From a virus, in IMG/VR virus record IMGVR_UViG_3300037119_000529, positions 1 through 22,848 of that record: a DNA stretch of 22,848 nt. One strand, 5' to 3'. The notes beneath the pieces were generated by a model, which was given only the letters and a program-made list of their open reading frames with translations, made no database searches and was not told the origin of the DNA. This document shows, piece by piece, positions 17,192 through 21,556 of the stretch. Each line of letters begins with the position of its first letter. The stretch's first letter is position 1. A program made the translations under genes and the position numbers.

Positions 17192-17264
17192 TGGAAGCGA
17201 TACCGAGAGTCGAACTCGGACTCAGTGGGTTGCAATCACTGTCTGCCTGCCCGGTCATACCGCC
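17192..17264 (-). tRNA. tRNA-Cys(GCA)
   Basis: The acceptor is GGCGGTA/TATCGCT, the T-arm CCGAG-TTCGACT-CTCGG is perfect, and the anticodon loop is TTGCAAC. U73, the cysteine identity base, is followed by an encoded CCA. The anticodon stem has an A31-C39 mismatch. Confidence 0.82.
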
Positions 17265-17265
17265 G

Positions 17266-17339
17266 TACACGACCAGGGAATCGAACCCTGCTCTAGACAC
17301 GTTATCAGCGTGCCTCTCACAACCAGTGAGATATCGTGC
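17266..17339 (-). tRNA. tRNA-Ile(GAU)
   Basis: The acceptor is GCACGAT/GTCGTGT, the D-stem CTCA/TGAG, and the anticodon arm GCACG-CTGATAA-CGTGT. The T-arm CAGGG-TTCGATT-CCCTG is perfect. A73 is present and no CCA is encoded. Confidence 0.9.
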
Positions 17340-17342
17340 TCA

Positions 17343-17416
17343 GTACCCCCCGAGAATTCCGACATCTCGACCCGCCGATTAAAAGTCGGCTGCTCTGCCT
17401 CTGAGCTAGAGGGGTA
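17343..17416 (-). tRNA. tRNA-Lys(UUU)
   Basis: The acceptor is TACCCCT/GGGGGTA, the D-arm GCTC/GAGC, and the anticodon arm GCCGA-CTTTTAA-TCGGC is perfect. The T-arm is unusual (GAGATGTCGGAATTCTC) and resembles that of tRNA-Lys(CUU) at 18151, so the two are probably duplicates. Confidence 0.85.
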
Positions 17417-17423
17417 TGGGACC

Positions 17424-17486
17424 GATGGGCGCTGGTGGATTCCAGTCGTTTGAGCCTTGCCAGCCTTCTCTAGGCTAAGCCCCATC
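17424..17486 (-). ncRNA. tRNA-slot element, possible degenerate tRNA
   Basis: This 63-base stretch is closed by GATGGG/CCCATC, holds a D-arm-like AGCC-TAGAGAA-GGCT and ends with CTGG-AATCCA-CCAG. No acceptable anticodon arm is found. It fills exactly one tRNA slot between Lys and Gln genes. Confidence 0.3.
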
Positions 17487-17493
17487 AGTCTCG

Positions 17494-17564
17494 CACCAAG
17501 GGCTGGAATCGAACCAACCGCACACCGAGTTCAGAGCCCGGCTGACCGCCTTGATCACCTTGGT
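17494..17564 (-). tRNA. tRNA-Gln(CUG)
   Basis: The acceptor ACCAAGG/CCTTGGT is perfect, the D-arm GATC-AAGGC-GGTC is short, the anticodon arm is CCGGG-CTCTGAA-CTCGG and the T-arm GTTGG-TTCGATT-CCAGC. G73 is present. Confidence 0.9.
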
Positions 17565-17569
17565 AAGTG

Positions 17570-17626
17570 GCTAGAGTCCTTCCCCCGCTTTGCATTGTCG
17601 CGCTATGGCGGCGGGGCTTCTCTAGC
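17570..17626 (-). ncRNA. 57-base structured tRNA-slot element
   Basis: GCTAGAG pairs perfectly with CTCTAGC at the two ends. Inside, CCCCGC pairs with GCGGGG around a loop with a small hairpin CGC-CATA-GCG. It has no T-arm or anticodon arm. It sits between tRNA-Gln and tRNA-Arg with almost no spacing. Confidence 0.35.
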
Positions 17627-17627
17627 C

Positions 17628-17703
17628 TGGTCCCCCTAGAGAGATTCGAACTCCCGGCAACGTAGGTTCGTAGCCTACTGCTCTTCCGCTGAGCTATAGA
17701 GGG
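17628..17703 (-). tRNA. tRNA-Arg(ACG)
   Basis: The acceptor is CCCTCTA/TAGGGGG, the D-arm GCTC/GAGC, the anticodon arm GTAGG-CTACGAA-CCTAC is perfect and the T-arm is GGGAG-TTCGAAT-CTCTC. A73 and CCA are encoded. A34 is normally edited to inosine by the host. Confidence 0.94.
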
Positions 17704-17713
17704 TTGTACTGCG

Positions 17714-17786
17714 TGCCTCTGGCGGGATTCGAACCCACTGCCTCCGTCATACCAAGACGGCATTCATCCATTTGAACCTCAAAGGC
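17714..17786 (-). tRNA. tRNA-Thr(GGU)
   Basis: The acceptor is GCCTTTG/CAGAGGC, the anticodon arm CCGTC-TTGGTAT-GACGG and the T-arm GTGGG-TTCGAAT-CCCGC. A73 is present and no CCA is encoded. Confidence 0.92.
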
Positions 17787-17788
17787 GG

Positions 17789-17861
17789 GGCTCCGTGCCG
17801 GGGTCGAACCGGCGCTTCCTGATTACGAAACAGGCGTGCTGGCCATTGTCACTAACAGAGC
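17789..17861 (-). tRNA. tRNA-Thr(CGU)
   Basis: The acceptor is GCTCTGT/ACGGAGC, the D-stem GTG/CAC and the T-arm GCCGG-TTCGACC-CCGGC is perfect. The anticodon arm CCTGT-TTCGTAA-TCAGG has one U-U pair. Confidence 0.9.
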
Positions 17862-17862
17862 G

Positions 17863-17929
17863 TAGCTCGTCAGGGGATCGAACCCTGCTTAGGAGTGTGT
17901 AGGACTCCGGTGTTCCCAGAACACAAGCC
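17863..17929 (-). tRNA. tRNA-Val(UAC) with C33 and odd D-arm
   Basis: The acceptor is GGCTTGT/ACGAGCT, the T-arm CAGGG-TTCGATC-CCCTG is perfect and the anticodon stem GGAGT/ACTCC is perfect around CCTACAC. The nearly universal U33 is C. The D region can fold as GTGTTC-TGG-GAACAC, which is not a normal D-arm. At 67 bases it is short. Confidence 0.72.
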
Positions 17930-17930
17930 G

Positions 17931-18004
17931 TGGGGCAACAGGGATTCGAACCCTGCCTTTCACTTTGGAAGAGTGATGTGCTATGCCGCTAACACTACTG
18001 CCCT
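17931..18004 (-). tRNA. tRNA-Gly(UCC)
   Basis: The anticodon arm TCACT-CTTCCAA-AGTGA is perfect, the T-arm CAGGG-TTCGAAT-CCCTG is perfect and the D-stem is GTG/CAC. The acceptor AGGGCAG/TTGCCCC has an A1-C72 mismatch. Confidence 0.9.
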
Positions 18005-18012
18005 ATATGATC

Positions 18013-18067
18013 CGCAGGCAAGGACGAAGGCCTTTGTTCGAGGCCGAGCGCATTGCTGACCCCTGCG
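18013..18067 (-). ncRNA. 55-base structured tRNA-slot element
   Basis: CGCAGG pairs with CCTGCG at the ends, and an anticodon-like arm GGCCT-CGAACAA-AGGCC lies inside, but there is no T-arm. It could be a tRNA remnant (a loop reading AAC would be valine, with G33). Confidence 0.3.
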
Positions 18068-18072
18068 TATCG

Positions 18073-18145
18073 TGCGGTAAGGGAGATTCGAACTCCCGCT
18101 AAGACGTTGGCAACGTCCCGTGCTAACCACTAACACTACTACCAC
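18073..18145 (-). tRNA. tRNA-Gly(GCC)
   Basis: The acceptor is GTGGTAG/TTACCGC, the anticodon arm GGACG-TTGCCAA-CGTCT and the T-arm GGGAG-TTCGAAT-CTCCC. The D-stem is GTG/CAC, as in the neighbouring Gly(UCC) gene. Confidence 0.92.
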
Positions 18146-18150
18146 ATGCG

Positions 18151-18222
18151 TGCTCCCAGAGAATTTCGAAATCTCGACCCGAGCCTTAAGAGGGCCCTGC
18201 TCTGCCTCTGAGCTACAGGAGC
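18151..18222 (-). tRNA. tRNA-Lys(CUU)
   Basis: The acceptor is GCTCCTG/TGGGAGC, the D-arm GCTC/GAGC and the anticodon arm GGGCC-CTCTTAA-GGCTC. The T-arm GAGAT-TTCGAAA-TTCTC has U-U in place of the usual G53-C61 pair. Confidence 0.88.
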
Positions 18223-18234
18223 GTATGTACTGCG

Positions 18235-18317
18235 CGGAGCCCGGACTACTCGAAAGCCATCCCAGCGGAACGATCCGGCTAGCAACCGGTCCCGGCACCC
18301 TGGCCGGTTCAGACTCC
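18235..18317 (-). tRNA. tRNA-Ser(GCU), class II
   Basis: The acceptor is GGAGTCT/GGGCTCC with G73. The anticodon loop TTGCTAG lies between CCGG and CCGG. The D-arm is CCGG/CCGG. A long variable region (about 15 bases) marks class II, as expected for serine. The T-loop is TTCGAGT. Confidence 0.85.
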
Positions 18318-18343
18318 ATGTTTCACACTGTTGAGTTGTGCTG

Positions 18344-18428
18344 CGGAAGAAGGACGAATCGAACGCCTGTGCCTGAGACACCCCTGGGTTTCGAAGCCAG
18401 TGCCCTAGCCATTAGAGCCTCATCTTCC
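18344..18428 (-). tRNA. tRNA-Ser(CGA), class II
   Basis: The acceptor is GGAAGAT/TTCTTCC with G73. The anticodon arm CTGGC-TTCGAAA-CCCAG has one C-C. The variable arm GTG-TCTCAGG-CAC gives class II shape. Confidence 0.87.
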
Positions 18429-18434
18429 AAAGAG

Positions 18435-18466
18435 AAATGGCCCCGGGTTTTCACCTAGGGCCACTT
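18435..18466 (-). terminator. terminator upstream of tRNA-Ser(CGA)
   Basis: AAGTGGCCC pairs with GGGCCATTT (one G-U), followed by CTCTTT. It would end transcription from the jelly-roll gene and the micro-ORF unit before the tRNAs. Confidence 0.65.
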
Positions 18467-18481
18467 CCTTGCTGATCTGTT

Positions 18482-18547
18482 TCAGCGTAGCCCGATAGCG
18501 GTGACCGACTGGCCCCCGCGCTTGGACGTGCTGATGATCATGAACAT
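18482..18547 (-). CDS. micro-ORF (21 residues) in promoter-terminator unit
   Basis: The peptide is MFMIISTSKRGGQSVTAIGL plus R. The ATG is seven bases after TGC-TACGAT, so a leaderless transcript is predicted, and a terminator follows 15 bases after the stop. There is no known family. The RNA rather than the peptide may be functional. Confidence 0.35.
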   Translation of the reverse strand: MFMIISTSKRGGQSVTAIGLR

Positions 18548-18554
18548 AGAACCT

Positions 18555-18563
18555 ATCGTAGCA
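18555..18563 (-). promoter_or_regulatory. extended -10 promoter of micro-ORF unit
   Basis: TGC-TACGAT followed by AG. The eight bases TACGATAG recur at the second micro-ORF unit (21412-21419). Confidence 0.45.
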
Positions 18564-18575
18564 TACTTCCCGGGA

Positions 18576-19049
18576 CTAGGGAAGGTCTCCGATGCGGGTC
18601 ACGTTGATGCGGCAGGCGAAGTTCGCGTACACGTTGCCAGAGACCGTCTGGTCCTGGATCACGAGCGTGGATCCGTTGCCGTAGCCGACGAGGCGGATCA
18701 CGTCGTTGGTGTACAGTTCCACGGTCTGCGCGTTGCCGCCGATGGAGGCACCCACCTGGACGATGCCGCCGAGTGCGCGGAGGTCGAGGCCGGTGATGCC
18801 CGTGGACTTGTTGCGGGTGAAGCCGACGATGCCGGAAGCTGCATTGTCCAGGATGAGGGTCCAGTCCAGCAGGTACAGGCCGTCCTCGGGGATGCGGATG
18901 CCGTCGCCCTGAACGTAGTCAGCGAAGACGAACGCGCCAGCCTGTCCGGTGACGTTCCAAGCGCCAGTGGCGTGGAGCGTGCCGTAGGAGCCATTGGGGG
19001 CGGAGAGAGAGTTGATGGTGCCGCGCGAGAGGCGCATTTGCGTAGTCAA
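18576..19049 (-). CDS. jelly-roll (C1q-like) virion or surface protein
   Basis: This protein of about 157 residues looks like a single beta-sandwich: GTINSLSAPNGSYGTLHATG, FVFADYVQGDGIRIPEDGLY, LLDWTLILDNAASGIVGFTR, VELYTNDVIRLVGYGNG and a final FACRINVTRIGDLP. The Y-L-L-D-W-T and D-V-I-R-L pattern resembles C1q/TNF-like domains of phage structural proteins, so it may be a small fibre or decoration protein. I prefer the TTG at 19049, with GGAG five bases upstream; a TTG at 19079 also opens the frame. A -10 (TACAAT) lies at 19086-19091. It is isolated inside the tRNA array, so it is likely a late insert. Confidence 0.7.
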   Translation of the reverse strand: MTTQMRLSRGTINSLSAPNGSYGTLHATGAWNVTGQAGAFVFADYVQGDGIRIPEDGLYLLDWTLILDNAASGIVGFTRNKSTGITGLDLRALGGIVQVGASIGGNAQTVELYTNDVIRLVGYGNGSTLVIQDQTVSGNVYANFACRINVTRIGDLP

Positions 19050-19085
19050 GAGAACTCCATCGTTGGTGGGTTGAACCAACCCTCC

Positions 19086-19091
19086 ATTGTA
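19086..19091 (-). promoter_or_regulatory. candidate -10 (TACAAT) for jelly-roll gene
   Basis: TACAAT matches five of six, and the start site would give a leader of about 30 bases carrying GATGGAG before the TTG start. Confidence 0.4.
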
Positions 19092-19097
19092 CTCCCG

Positions 19098-19421
19098 CTA
19101 TCTGGGATCGAACTGATCGGTGACCACGCGCTCGTCGGTGTGGCCCTTGAATACCACGCGGCTTGCGAAGCCAGCGTTCCGGTAAGCCCTAGCGAACTTC
19201 ACAGCGCGCTTGCGGGGCAGTTCGCGGCTGATATAGAACCAGCCATCCTCAGCCCAGTAGGGCCATTCTGTGACCGTCCGAGAGGTGGCGCGACCTTCGA
19301 CCTCGACGTAGTTAGGGTGGAGCCCCCGCTGATTCTTGCTGCGAGGCTTGGGGAGGTGCCAGTCGTTCGCCGCGATGGGCTTGAACACCTGGACGAAGTG
19401 TCCGGTCCTGCTGTTCGGCAT
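19098..19421 (-). CDS. hypothetical protein inside tRNA array
   Basis: This is a 107-residue basic protein starting MPNSRTGHFVQVFKPIAAND. GAGGAGGG six bases upstream makes ATG 19421 the clear start; a longer frame would run into tRNA-Leu(CAG). It contains ENWPYWAED-like aromatic residues (TEWPYWAEDGWFYISRELPR) and an arginine/lysine-rich helix (RKRAVKFARAYRNAGFASR). I do not recognise a family; the basic helix could bind nucleic acid. It lies 19 bases after a tRNA gene, so it probably shares the tRNA transcript and would be freed by tRNA processing. Confidence 0.75.
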   Translation of the reverse strand: MPNSRTGHFVQVFKPIAANDWHLPKPRSKNQRGLHPNYVEVEGRATSRTVTEWPYWAEDGWFYISRELPRKRAVKFARAYRNAGFASRVVFKGHTDERVVTDQFDPR

Positions 19422-19440
19422 GATGCCCTCCTCGCTATCG

Positions 19441-19514
19441 TGGCCCGTGTGGGATTCGAACCCACAGCATCCCACGGTCTGAGCATGGGTGGTCTACCGG
19501 TTGCCTAACTGGCC
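19441..19514 (-). tRNA. tRNA-Leu(CAG) with short variable loop
   Basis: The anticodon arm is CCATG-CTCAGAC-CGTGG, the T-arm GTGGG-TTCGAAT-CCCAC and A73 is present. The acceptor GGCCAGT/ACGGGCC has one mismatch. The variable region is only about ATGCT, whereas bacterial tRNA-Leu normally has a long arm. Confidence 0.85.
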
Positions 19515-19515
19515 G

Positions 19516-19589
19516 TACTCCGAGTGGGATTCGAACCCACAGCATACGACGCACTCAACATCGTTGGTCTACCGATTGCCTACCGAAGC
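19516..19589 (-). tRNA. tRNA-Leu(GAG) with short variable loop
   Basis: The acceptor is GCTTCGG/TCGGAGT (G-U rich), the anticodon arm CGATG-TTGAGTG-CGTCG and the T-arm GTGGG-TTCGAAT-CCCAC. A73 is present. It shares its D-arm and ATGCT variable loop with its two neighbours. Confidence 0.85.
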
Positions 19590-19590
19590 G

Positions 19591-19664
19591 TGACGATCCT
19601 GGGATTCGAACCCAGAGCATGCGGGGGTTTGAATCCCGCTGGTCTACCGATTGCCTAGACCGCC
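19591..19664 (-). tRNA. tRNA-Leu(CAA) with short variable loop
   Basis: The acceptor is GGCGGTC/GATCGTC, the anticodon arm GCGGGA-TTCAAAC-CCCCGC (one A-C) and the T-arm CTGGG-TTCGAAT-CCCAG. A73 is present and the variable loop is ATGCT. Confidence 0.85.
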
Positions 19665-19668
19665 AAGG

Positions 19669-19714
19669 TGGCAGTTTTGCTCGGACCTGGGGTGAGTACC
19701 GAACGGATCTGCCA
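19669..19714 (-). ncRNA. 46-base structured spacer element
   Basis: TGGCAG pairs with CTGCCA at the ends; inside are CCG-TT-CGG and further short pairings. No tRNA arms are seen. It lies between the Leu and Phe tRNA genes. Confidence 0.25.
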
Positions 19715-19721
19715 ACCGCCG

Positions 19722-19795
19722 TGGCTCCCGGGAGACTCGCACTCCACCCCTCCGGCTTTTCAAACCAGCGCTCCGACTATTAGAGCTTGGGATCC
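19722..19795 (-). tRNA. tRNA-Phe(GAA)
   Basis: The acceptor GGATCCC/GGGAGCC has one mismatch. The D-arm is GCTC/GAGC and the anticodon arm CTGGT-TTGAAAA-GCCGG. The T-loop is TGCGAGT instead of TTCGANT. A73 is present. Confidence 0.87.
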
Positions 19796-19796
19796 G

Positions 19797-19868
19797 TGGC
19801 GCTGGAAGGAATCGAACCTTCTCACGAACGGTTTACAGCCGTAGCCCAGTGAGCCAACTGTCAACGCC
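19797..19868 (-). tRNA. tRNA-Tyr(GUA) with short variable loop
   Basis: The acceptor is GGCGTTG/CAGCGCC, the anticodon loop CTGTAAA lies between ACGG and CCGT, and the T-arm GAAGG-TTCGATT-CCTTC is perfect. Bacterial tRNA-Tyr is normally class II; here the variable region is about six bases. Confidence 0.87.
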
Positions 19869-19869
19869 G

Positions 19870-19948
19870 TGACTAGTACCGGAATCGAACCGGTGTCCTT
19901 TACTGAGGGTGAAAATCTCAGTGCCCCTGCCAGCAGAGCAAACTAGCC
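19870..19948 (-). tRNA. tRNA-Glu(UUC)
   Basis: The acceptor is GGCTAGT/ACTAGTC, the anticodon loop TTTTCAC lies in the CTGAG/CTCAG stem region, and the T-arm ACCGG-TTCGATT-CCGGT is perfect. The variable region is slightly long (eight bases). Confidence 0.88.
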
Positions 19949-20242
19949 AGATGTGAGAGGGCCCTAGAACTGACCCTCTATAGCAGACTTTCGCGCGGCT
20001 TATGTATTACCGGCTTCTCCACGATGTCCCCACCGTATCTGCCATGCCCGGTTGTTAGGACAACCACCCCTTACGACGTGAACTACTCCACAAGATTCGA
20101 TTCGCGAAAGGATGGCCGTCCATCCGCTGCACTACTACTTCGTGAACACCCTTGGCCTTTCGAGCTTCCAGGTGCCTGGATTGGCTTGCGCCTCCAGGAT
20201 TAGGGCACTTTCGCCCACGTCGGGAAGAGAACTTTCGATTTG
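19949..20242 (-). ncRNA. hairpin-rich non-coding region between tRNAs
   Basis: No convincing gene is seen. Minus-strand hairpins include CCTGGA-GGC-GCAA-GCC-AA-TCCAGG (GNRA loop), GGTTGT-CCTA-ACAACC, GGATGG-ACGG-CCATCC and AGAGGG paired with CCCTCT at 19955-19979. A 58-base unit at 20105-20162 is closed by CGAAAGG/CCTTTCG. Frames through it look non-coding. Confidence 0.4.
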
Positions 20243-20314
20243 AATGCAATCAAGGATTTGAACCTTGACACACGGTTTACAGAACCGTTGCTCTGCCAAT
20301 TGAGCTAAATGCCG
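20243..20314 (-). tRNA. tRNA-like gene, Thr(UGU) or Tyr-like, weak acceptor
   Basis: The D-arm GCTC/GAGC, the anticodon stem ACGGT/ACCGT and the T-arm CAAGG-TTCAAAT-CCTTG are good. The seven-base loop TCTGTAA reads UGU (Thr) but with C33. The sequence also equals tRNA-Tyr's arm with two inserted T residues. The acceptor CGGCATT/ATTGCAT pairs poorly. It may be decaying. Confidence 0.6.
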
Positions 20315-20746
20315 TGACGATGGAAGTGCTCTTCCAGAAGTTCCGAACCCTTTGGAGGCCCAGAATGCTTCACTCCCACATAGCTTTCGGTGTCACCCTA
20401 ATCGCACTCTCCGCCGCTACTCCCGACCCGCCGACCGGTTTGACGCCTTCATGGAACCCGCCCTAGGCCGACAAGCCTCGGACTCAGTTCCTTCCTCGTG
20501 GACATCCAATCTCGTTTCCAGATCCACCCCCTGCCGGGAGTGCGTACATAGCCTGTCGGCCCTACGCTTCAGATCGTTGACTCGAAAAGATGGCATCCAG
20601 GTCTTTGGCTCCTGAACGCTCAACCACTCGGTTTGCATGAGATACCATCGCTGGCGGCTGGAAGTCATCCAACCTTTCACCAGGTCGCCCTGGCTTATCC
20701 GTCATGCCGGTTTGGTCATCCCTTGCGGAACTCCCTGTCGTCACCG
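20315..20746 (-). ncRNA. candidate structured ncRNA(s) with own promoter
   Basis: This stretch of about 430 bases has no convincing protein gene, and a promoter sits just upstream. Two helices are unlikely by chance. One is a nine-pair stem at 20641-20649 with 20589-20597 (GATGGTATC/GATGCCATC, with a G-U valid only on the minus strand), enclosing AACC-GAGT-GGTT and CAGG/CCTG as a three-way junction followed by TTTT. The other is a ten-pair stem at 20554-20564 with 20464-20473 (TGTCGGCCTA and its partner). A seven-pair GGTTGGA-TGACT-TCCAGCC hairpin and a final GGAAG-AGCA-CTTCC hairpin add to the structure. There is no known family. Confidence 0.5.
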
Positions 20747-20776
20747 ACTCTAACACGAGGTCAGAGCCGATGTCAA
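20747..20776 (-). promoter_or_regulatory. promoter with -35 TTGACA and extended -10
   Basis: TTGACA (20776-20771) lies 18 bases before TAGAGT (20752-20747), which is preceded by TGT, giving a full -35 and a TG extension. It is the best sigma-70-type promoter on the coding strand in the window. It lies just after tRNA-Glu(CUC) and drives the structured RNA region. Confidence 0.6.
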
Positions 20777-20797
20777 CGCGATTTCCTGAGAAACCGC

Positions 20798-20871
20798 TGG
20801 TAGCCCATGGGGGTTACGATCCCCCGACAAGTGACTGAGAATCACTCGTGTTGCCATTACACCAATGGGCC
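20798..20871 (-). tRNA. tRNA-Glu(CUC)
   Basis: The acceptor is GGCCCAT/ATGGGCT with A73 and an encoded CCA. The anticodon arm is AGTGA-TTCTCAG-TCACT. The T-stem GGGGG/CCCCC is perfect, with loop ATCGTAA. A relic of a related tRNA lies at 4836-4896. Confidence 0.9.
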
Positions 20872-20876
20872 ATGCG

Positions 20877-20949
20877 CGACCATACGGGGTATCGATCCCC
20901 GACCTCTTGCTCGACAGGCAAGCGTGCACGTCCTGTACACCATACGGCC
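20877..20949 (-). tRNA. tRNA-Asp(GUC)
   Basis: The acceptor is GGCCGTA/TATGGTC, the anticodon arm CTTGC-CTGTCGA-GCAAG is perfect, and the T-stem CGGGG/CCCCG has loop ATCGATA. G73 is the aspartate identity base. Confidence 0.9.
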
Positions 20950-20950
20950 T

Positions 20951-21025
20951 TGGGGTGGCGTACGGGGATCCAACCCGCGACTCCAGGTCCACAACCTGGT
21001 GTGTTAGCACTACACTAACGCTACC
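20951..21025 (-). tRNA. tRNA-His(GUG)
   Basis: The anticodon arm CCAGG-TTGTGGA-CCTGG is perfect. The extra G at position -1 pairs with C73, the histidine hallmark, and CCA is encoded. The acceptor has one A3-C70 mismatch. The T-loop is TTGGATC. Confidence 0.92.
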
Positions 21026-21026
21026 G

Positions 21027-21098
21027 TCCGGACTAGAGGATTCGAACCTCTGACTCCATGGTCCCTAACCAAGTCGCTTACCACTCGCGTAAATCCGG
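21027..21098 (-). tRNA. tRNA-Pro(AGG)
   Basis: The acceptor is CCGGATT/AGTCCGG and the T-arm AGAGG-TTCGAAT-CCTCT is perfect. The anticodon arm CTTGG-TTAGGGA-CCATG has one mismatch. Confidence 0.9.
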
Positions 21099-21101
21099 TC
21101 A

Positions 21102-21129
21102 GCATACTATTTTTCTTCACGCCGTATGC
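21102..21129 (-). other. hairpin between tRNA-fMet and tRNA-Pro
   Basis: GCATAC pairs with GTATGC around a 16-base A-rich loop (GGCGTGAAGAAAAATA). It may be a processing signal or a promoter (TAGTAT). Confidence 0.35.
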
Positions 21130-21141
21130 CAGGGTCGCTCG

Positions 21142-21209
21142 TTGCGGAGGAGAGATTCGAACTCTCGACGTGCCGGGTTATGAGCCCAGAGCCCCACCAG
21201 GGCCCCGCG
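21142..21209 (-). tRNA. initiator tRNA-fMet(CAU), short D-arm
   Basis: The acceptor CGCGGGG/CTCCGCA has the C1-A72 mismatch that marks bacterial initiator tRNAs, and the anticodon stem CTGGG-CTCATAA-CCCGG has the three G-C pairs needed for P-site entry. The T-arm GAGAG-TTCGAAT-CTCTC is perfect and A73 is present. The D-arm is only CCC-TGGT-GGGG, so the gene is about 68 bases. Confidence 0.85.
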
Positions 21210-21222
21210 TCGTTGTCTTGCG

Positions 21223-21294
21223 TGGATCGTGTGGGACTCGAACCCACCTGCCTGCCAGCTTGCAAGGCTAGCGCGCTTACCCTGAGCACAACCC
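21223..21294 (-). tRNA. tRNA-Ala(UGC)
   Basis: The acceptor GGGTTGT/ACGATCC includes the G3-U70 pair that specifies alanine. The anticodon arm is CTAGC-CTTGCAA-GCTGG and the T-arm GTGGG-TTCGAGT-CCCAC. A73 is present. Confidence 0.93.
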
Positions 21295-21304
21295 GTGAAC
21301 AGCA

Positions 21305-21336
21305 GAACCCCCGACCAGTTTCCTAGTCGGGGGTTC
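21305..21336 (-). terminator. terminator with GAAA tetraloop
   Basis: A 14-pair stem (GAACCCCCGACTAG with its complement, one G-U) is capped by GAAA. There is no long T tract. It follows the second micro-ORF. Confidence 0.7.
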
Positions 21337-21353
21337 GCAAATGGGTGCGCCGA

Positions 21354-21407
21354 CTAGGCTCCGGGGTCAAGCTCCGGGGCGAAGTGCAGTGCATACATCG
21401 TGGTCAT
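21354..21407 (-). CDS. micro-ORF (17 residues) in promoter-terminator unit
   Basis: The peptide is MTTMYALHFAPELDPGA. The ATG is six bases after TGG-TACGAT, which fits a leaderless transcript, and the terminator at 21305-21336 follows. A longer reading from 21425 would start upstream of the promoter. There is no known family. Confidence 0.35.
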   Translation of the reverse strand: MTTMYALHFAPELDPGA

Positions 21408-21413
21408 GGGACT

Positions 21414-21422
21414 ATCGTACCA
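21414..21422 (-). promoter_or_regulatory. extended -10 promoter of second micro-ORF unit
   Basis: TGG-TACGAT followed by AG. It lies just after the tRNA-Asn terminator. Confidence 0.45.
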
Positions 21423-21443
21423 CATGTTCGGCGGGCAAAGGAA

Positions 21444-21475
21444 AAGACCCCCACCGGATTTCCAGAAGGGGCCTT
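21444..21475 (-). terminator. terminator after tRNA-Asn
   Basis: AAGGCCCC pairs with GGGGTCTT (one G-U) and is followed by TTTTCCTTT. It is the only terminator here with a good T-rich tail. Confidence 0.75.
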
Positions 21476-21483
21476 CGTCCACG

Positions 21484-21556
21484 CTCTTCCACCAGGATTC
21501 GAACCTAGACCACTTGATTAACAGTCAAGCACGCTCGCCGTTTACGCCATAGAAGA
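21484..21556 (-). tRNA. tRNA-Asn(GUU)
   Basis: The acceptor is TCTTCTA/TGGAAGA, the anticodon arm CTTGA-CTGTTAA-TCAAG is perfect and the T-arm is CTAGG-TTCGAAT-CCTGG. G73 fits asparagine. Confidence 0.92.

What the first reader, a model, noticed from the sequence alone, without database searches (positions are those of the whole stretch)
20315..20776. Candidate new structured RNA with its own promoter
A TTGACA promoter with extended -10 precedes about 430 non-coding bases. They contain a nine-pair helix closing a three-way junction followed by TTTT, and a ten-pair helix enclosing 80 bases with further hairpins. One pair is G-U only on the minus strand, matching the predicted direction. CGCACTC inside the second helix can pair with GAGTGCG outside it, a possible pseudoknot.
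Basis: partly seen in the sequence, partly recalled or inferred. Interest (0 to 1): 0.7.

Follow-up and report, generated by a model that had tools for sequence, protein, structure and literature searches.

The report
Phage GOLLD RNA, 5' domain
The stretch is the front half of GOLLD, a giant phage-encoded RNA already known to build hollow RNA cages, so it is a real structured RNA but not a new kind; its one unusual point is a tRNA-shaped insert that seems built not to work as a tRNA.

Summary
Window 20380-19958(-) matches the complete Rfam GOLLD model RF02032 (186.8 bits; cut-off 150). The finding covers the promoter, the GOLLD 5' domain and the first helices of the 3' domain. The RNA then runs through a tRNA-like linker to about 19958, roughly 780 nt, inside a phage tRNA array. 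The same full-length RNA, 5' domain included, lies in tRNA arrays of cluster M mycobacteriophages, a mycobacterial plasmid and several mycobacterial genomes. The nine-pair helix is chance-level and collides with a conserved GNRA hairpin; the ten-pair (really 13-pair) helix and the pseudoknot are not conserved in place. The promoter match is good but private to this phage. By homology with the solved GOLLD 14-mer, the likely role is the cap of an RNA-only nanocage (inferred). One lesser-known detail: the linker tRNA keeps a covarying cloverleaf but its first two acceptor pairs are open (0 of 12 linker tRNAs have both paired, against 184 of 195 array tRNAs).

The parts
20798..20871 (-). tRNA-Glu(CTC) immediately upstream of the GOLLD promoter
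   Evidence: ARAGORN and Rfam
20747..20776 (-). sigma-70-type promoter: TTGACA, 18-nt spacer, extended -10 TG-T-TAGAGT; predicted transcription start about 20740 (not measured)
   Evidence: not conserved in relatives
20381..20740 (-). GOLLD 5' domain (about 360 nt), homologous to the 5' part of mycobacteriophage and mycobacterial GOLLDs
20699..20710 (-). hairpin 1 of the 5' domain: CCG-GCATGA-CGG; outer two pairs change together (C-G, G-C, A-U), loop GCATGR conserved
20680..20693 (-). hairpin 2: CCAGG-GCGA-CCTGG, all five pairs with double changes
20656..20674 (-). hairpin 3: GGTTGG-ATGACTT-CCAGCC
   Evidence: outer two pairs 98% paired, closing pair C-G/A-U/G-C
20424..20437 (-). 5-pair hairpin near the end of the 5' domain, paired in 23 of 23 sequences with strong covariation
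19958..20380 (-). GOLLD 3' domain, full RF02032 model 1-416, 186.8 bits
20244..20314 (-). tRNA-like domain in the GOLLD linker (Thr-UGU-like, C instead of U at position 33; acceptor pairs 1, 2 and 6 do not form)
   Evidence: not called by ARAGORN
19869..19948 (-). tRNA-Glu(TTC) that starts 9 nt after the GOLLD 3' end

Best explanation
The finding is the promoter, 5' domain and start of the 3' domain of a GOLLD RNA of about 780 nt (20740 to 19958, minus strand) carried in the tRNA array of a tailed phage. Shown here: homology of both domains to known GOLLDs, covariation of the 5' domain, position in the array and the tRNA-like linker. [quoted passage not shown] Inferred: the RNA is made late in infection, from its own promoter and/or by read-through of the tRNA operon, with the 3' end possibly set when the tRNA 9 nt downstream is processed. 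The final benefit to the phage is unknown in the literature.
For: Rfam GOLLD full-length model match, 186.8 bits against a cut-off of 150. GOLLD over cut-off at the same kind of place in seven Vilmaviridae phages (cluster M phages and an M. abscessus prophage) and plasmid pCBMA213, and in 6 of 297 genomes of the genus of Mycobacterium sp. D16Q14. Full-length nucleotide homology including the 5' domain in about 20 loci. Covariation in a tree-aware test and by pair counts: 96.9% of cells paired, 132 cells changed on both sides against 38 in shuffles, 19 pairs with double changes. Length, two-domain layout, variable linker with tRNA and phage tRNA-island setting agree with PMC12286853. GOLLD transcript seen by northern blot in M. 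aubagnense (PMC6582537).
Against: No transcript data for this phage. Cage formation was shown for env-38 GOLLD only; this lineage lacks one of the two small hairpins that the Rfam consensus has near model positions 246-263, which by rough numbering may be the L21b loop of one half-shell contact. The 5' domain could not be compared with that of env-38 or Lactobacillus brevis.
Confidence: 0.93

Rival explanations
1. A separate, new structured RNA lies at 20315-20776 and only happens to sit upstream of a GOLLD 3' domain.
For: Rfam's model covers only the 3' domain, so the 5' region itself has no Rfam match. It has its own promoter match.
Against: The 5' region is present in the same order directly in front of the 3' domain in 22 relatives, with shared motifs and covarying helices. 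The published GOLLD has a 5' domain of similar size (residues 1-420 of 833; PMC12286853).
Confidence: 0.03
2. The GOLLD copy here is a decaying remnant, as its damaged-looking linker tRNA and long branch might suggest.
For: The 5' domain is 54-61% identical to relatives; the linker tRNA is degenerate at the acceptor end; a 5'-truncated GOLLD exists in locus L034.
Against: The window forms nearly all conserved helix pairs, many through compensatory changes, and the 3' domain matches the full model. The open acceptor end is shared by all linker tRNAs examined.
Confidence: 0.05
3. Short protein genes, as annotated in several phages over the same place (e.g. Aziz gene 105, Rey gene 107).
For: ORFs of 50-87 aa exist on both strands; relatives have annotated 'hypothetical proteins' here.
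Against: Similarity appears in many frames of both strands, indels are not multiples of three, and the variation follows base pairing.
Confidence: 0.01

Closest known systems
GOLLD RNA (Rfam RF02032), cluster M mycobacteriophages and mycobacterial tRNA arrays
   Same: Both domains, order, length, tRNA-like linker, tRNA array setting, flanking tRNA within about 10 nt of the 3' end in most
   Different: Only 54-61% identical in the 5' domain; carried by a phage whose terminase and portal are closest to Pseudanabaena phage Pan2 among the records searched; has a promoter match that the relatives lack
env-38 GOLLD (cryo-EM 14-mer, PMC12286853)
   Same: Two domains of about 400 nt, variable linker, phage tRNA-island origin; the 3' domain fits the Rfam model
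   Different: No tRNA is mentioned in the env-38 linker (nt 497-538); this lineage lacks one small hairpin of the 3' domain; 5' domains not compared
ROOL RNA
   Same: Large phage RNA near tRNA islands that forms an RNA cage (PMC12286853)
   Different: No ROOL match in the window

Membership tests
GOLLD (RF02032) | 3' domain matches the covariance model above the gathering score | tested here: met
   186.8 bits against 150, model 1-416, not truncated
GOLLD (RF02032) | A further 5' domain of about 350-420 nt directly upstream | tested here: met
   Homologous and covarying in 23 aligned sequences; similar size to the published one
GOLLD (RF02032) | Variable linker in the 3' region, sometimes holding a tRNA | tested here: met
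   tRNA-like 20314-20244
GOLLD (RF02032) | Encoded by phage or prophage near tRNA islands | tested here: met
   21 tRNA genes called in the window; tail, portal and terminase genes
GOLLD (RF02032) | 5' domain shares the fold of env-38 or L. brevis GOLLD | not tested
   Those sequences were not on hand
GOLLD (RF02032) | Homo-14-mer nanocage | not testable with these tools
   Needs transcription in vitro and mass photometry or cryo-EM
GOLLD (RF02032) | Expression rises during lysis | not testable with these tools
   No RNA data
ROOL | Match to a ROOL model | tested here: not met
   No such match at gathering level or at E up to 5

The most novel reading that the evidence does not exclude
The tRNA-like domain in actinobacterial GOLLD linkers is a dedicated, non-decoding tRNA mimic. 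Its body is kept by compensatory changes, its anticodon drifts, and its acceptor tip is kept open so that it is not cut out or charged. Up to fourteen copies would hang inside the RNA cage as bait or ligand for a tRNA-binding host factor, for example a tRNA-cutting defence nuclease or the ribosome.
Probability: 0.15. Interest if true: 0.75.

Novelty: new member of a known kind. Interest (0 to 1): 0.33.

Why it matters
It adds a divergent GOLLD from outside the mycobacteriophages, which gives leverage for 5'-domain covariation where Rfam has no model. The linker comparison makes a concrete question testable: whether the tRNA tied to GOLLD is meant to stay attached. As a 'new RNA' claim it is ordinary.

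Tried and rejected
Pattern CGAAAG..CTAAT..GGCG in viral contigs: no hits. Pattern GAGTA..CGNAAGGAGTGG: 28 stretches, of which only one (L042) held GOLLD by Rfam. Terminase neighbours in viral contigs: three short contigs, none with a GOLLD match. Curtobacterium phage Yappy shares the Pro-His-Asp-Glu tRNA order but has no GOLLD match in the stretch fetched. A protein frame was rejected. Intrinsic terminator after the RNA: none found on the minus strand. Morgado 2020 on mycobacterial GOLLD (PMC7549688) is not held, so I could not check whether the open acceptor end has been described.

Full report
What it is. Rfam's GOLLD model (RF02032) matches window 20380-19958 on the minus strand over its full length, 186.8 bits against a cut-off of 150. 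That model covers only the conserved 3' half of GOLLD. Kretsch et al. [quoted passage not shown] The finding (20315-20776) therefore spans the promoter, the 5' domain and the first helices of the 3' domain.

The 5' domain is homologous to that of other GOLLDs. blastn found only partial matches in cluster M mycobacteriophages, but each of the loci fetched, and plasmid pCBMA213, has GOLLD over cut-off in its tRNA array. A profile of the whole RNA aligns end to end in about 20 loci. A search of 297 genomes of the genus of Mycobacterium sp. D16Q14 found GOLLD over cut-off in six. Conserved blocks of the 5' domain include GCATGGC..CATA, GTGAAAGG, CATGCAA, AGTC.GAG and GGGCG....CCATGA.

Covariation. 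On 20 non-redundant rows, a G-test with a null that keeps the tree gave pairs with E near 0 in hairpin 1 (20709:20700), hairpin 2 (20690:20683) and the hairpin at 20437-20424 (my own re-implementation of the R-scape idea, not R-scape itself). Pair counts on 23 rows for nine conserved helices: 96.9% of cells paired against 83.9% shuffled, 132 double changes against 38, 19 pairs with double changes. Three of the nine helices counted belong to the 3' domain, but the 5' hairpins alone carry many double changes. One more actinobacterial GOLLD found later (L069) shows hairpin 1 as GCG-GCATGG-CGC, as the model predicts.

The nine-pair helix uses the 3' strand and part of the loop of a conserved GNRA hairpin (20654-20645) and pairs in only 48.5% of cells. 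Shuffled sequence holds about five stems of that quality. The ten-pair helix is really 13 pairs, the strongest stem in the region, but reached by 7% of shuffles, and relatives do not pair the same columns. It may be real in this phage only; the middle of the 5' domain (about 20640-20470) is poorly aligned and I leave it open. The pseudoknot gains no support.

Promoter. TTGACA-18-TAGAGT with extended -10 is unique in the window and absent from 100 shuffles, but no comparable site precedes GOLLD in relatives. There the RNA can begin right after a tRNA (Bongo, PegLeg: tRNA-Asn ends at locus base 999; conserved core from about 1004). At the other end a tRNA follows within about 8-13 nt in most loci, including a 642-kb uncultured phage. 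Read-through of the tRNA operon with tRNA processing could make the ends without a dedicated promoter; this is inference.

The linker tRNA. In 12 linkers compared, all D, anticodon and T pairs and acceptor pairs 3-7 form in at least 11 of 12, with many compensatory changes, while acceptor pair 1 forms in 3 and pair 2 in 2. Of linker tRNAs called by ARAGORN, 0 of 12 have both tip pairs, against 184 of 195 array tRNAs from the same loci (Fisher p 1e-13, which overstates independence because some linkers are close relatives). Anticodons vary widely (Leu, Ser, Met, His, Gln, Thr-like and unassigned). A study of M. aubagnense called its GOLLD tRNA a pseudo-tRNA and saw no free product (PMC6582537). 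Kretsch et al. note tRNAs in some GOLLD linkers and place the linker inside the cage. Together this suggests a tRNA-shaped body kept for its shape and left attached. It could instead be one old tRNA that lost its tip and drifted; related acceptor sequences in several linkers (CATTT/AATGT) fit shared descent. Several relatives (Aziz, MrMagoo, Reindeer, Bongo, Nanosmite) have no callable linker tRNA at all, so it is not essential to GOLLD. The function is speculation.

Host and phage. Tail, capsid, portal and terminase genes mark a tailed phage. Terminase is 52% and portal 33% identical to Pseudanabaena phage Pan2, then mostly actinobacteriophages. Mycobacterium phages are not among the portal hits and not among the named terminase groups, so the GOLLD-tRNA module seems to have moved between phage lineages. 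The host is unknown.

Verdict. A real, structured, conserved RNA, but a new member of the known GOLLD family rather than a new RNA.

Noticed in passing
window 20244-20314 and linkers of L003, L005, L008, L009, L023, L027, L028, L030-L034, L036, L037, L069: GOLLD linker tRNAs keep the cloverleaf but have open acceptor tips and varied anticodons; some have anticodon loops of abnormal size.
   Followed up: partly
L002:3380-3508, L005:1570-1713, L007:1587-1730, L003:1901-2017, L026:1170-1313: Phage records carry small 'hypothetical protein' genes over the GOLLD 5' domain, probably spurious annotation.
   Followed up: yes
L034:1437-1955: GOLLD with its 5' domain cut off; the sequence upstream has no similarity to the GOLLD 5' domain profile.
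   Followed up: partly
L070:1739-2145: GOLLD (275 bits) in an unannotated 642-kb uncultured phage record (LR756502.1), again followed by a tRNA 10 nt downstream.
   Followed up: partly
window 20095-20135 (approx.) and relatives: All nine GOLLDs aligned lack the second of two small hairpins that the Rfam consensus has near model positions 246-263; it may be the loop of a half-shell contact in the cryo-EM structure.
   Followed up: partly
alignment A1 columns 206-226 (relatives of window 20535-20550): Most relatives have a hairpin with conserved loop TACGTG (palindromic ACGT) on a changing stem, a possible kissing loop; the window has TACGCA without the stem.
   Followed up: no
window 17192-21556 (-): Array of 21 ARAGORN-called tRNAs; the Pro-His-Asp-Glu order matches Curtobacterium phage Yappy at 69% identity.
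   Followed up: partly
L004:2477-2820, L003:2480-2843, L006:2724-3076, L007:2299-2669: tmRNA genes found by Rfam near GOLLD in MrMagoo, Estes, Nanosmite and Reindeer that are not annotated in the records shown.
   Followed up: no
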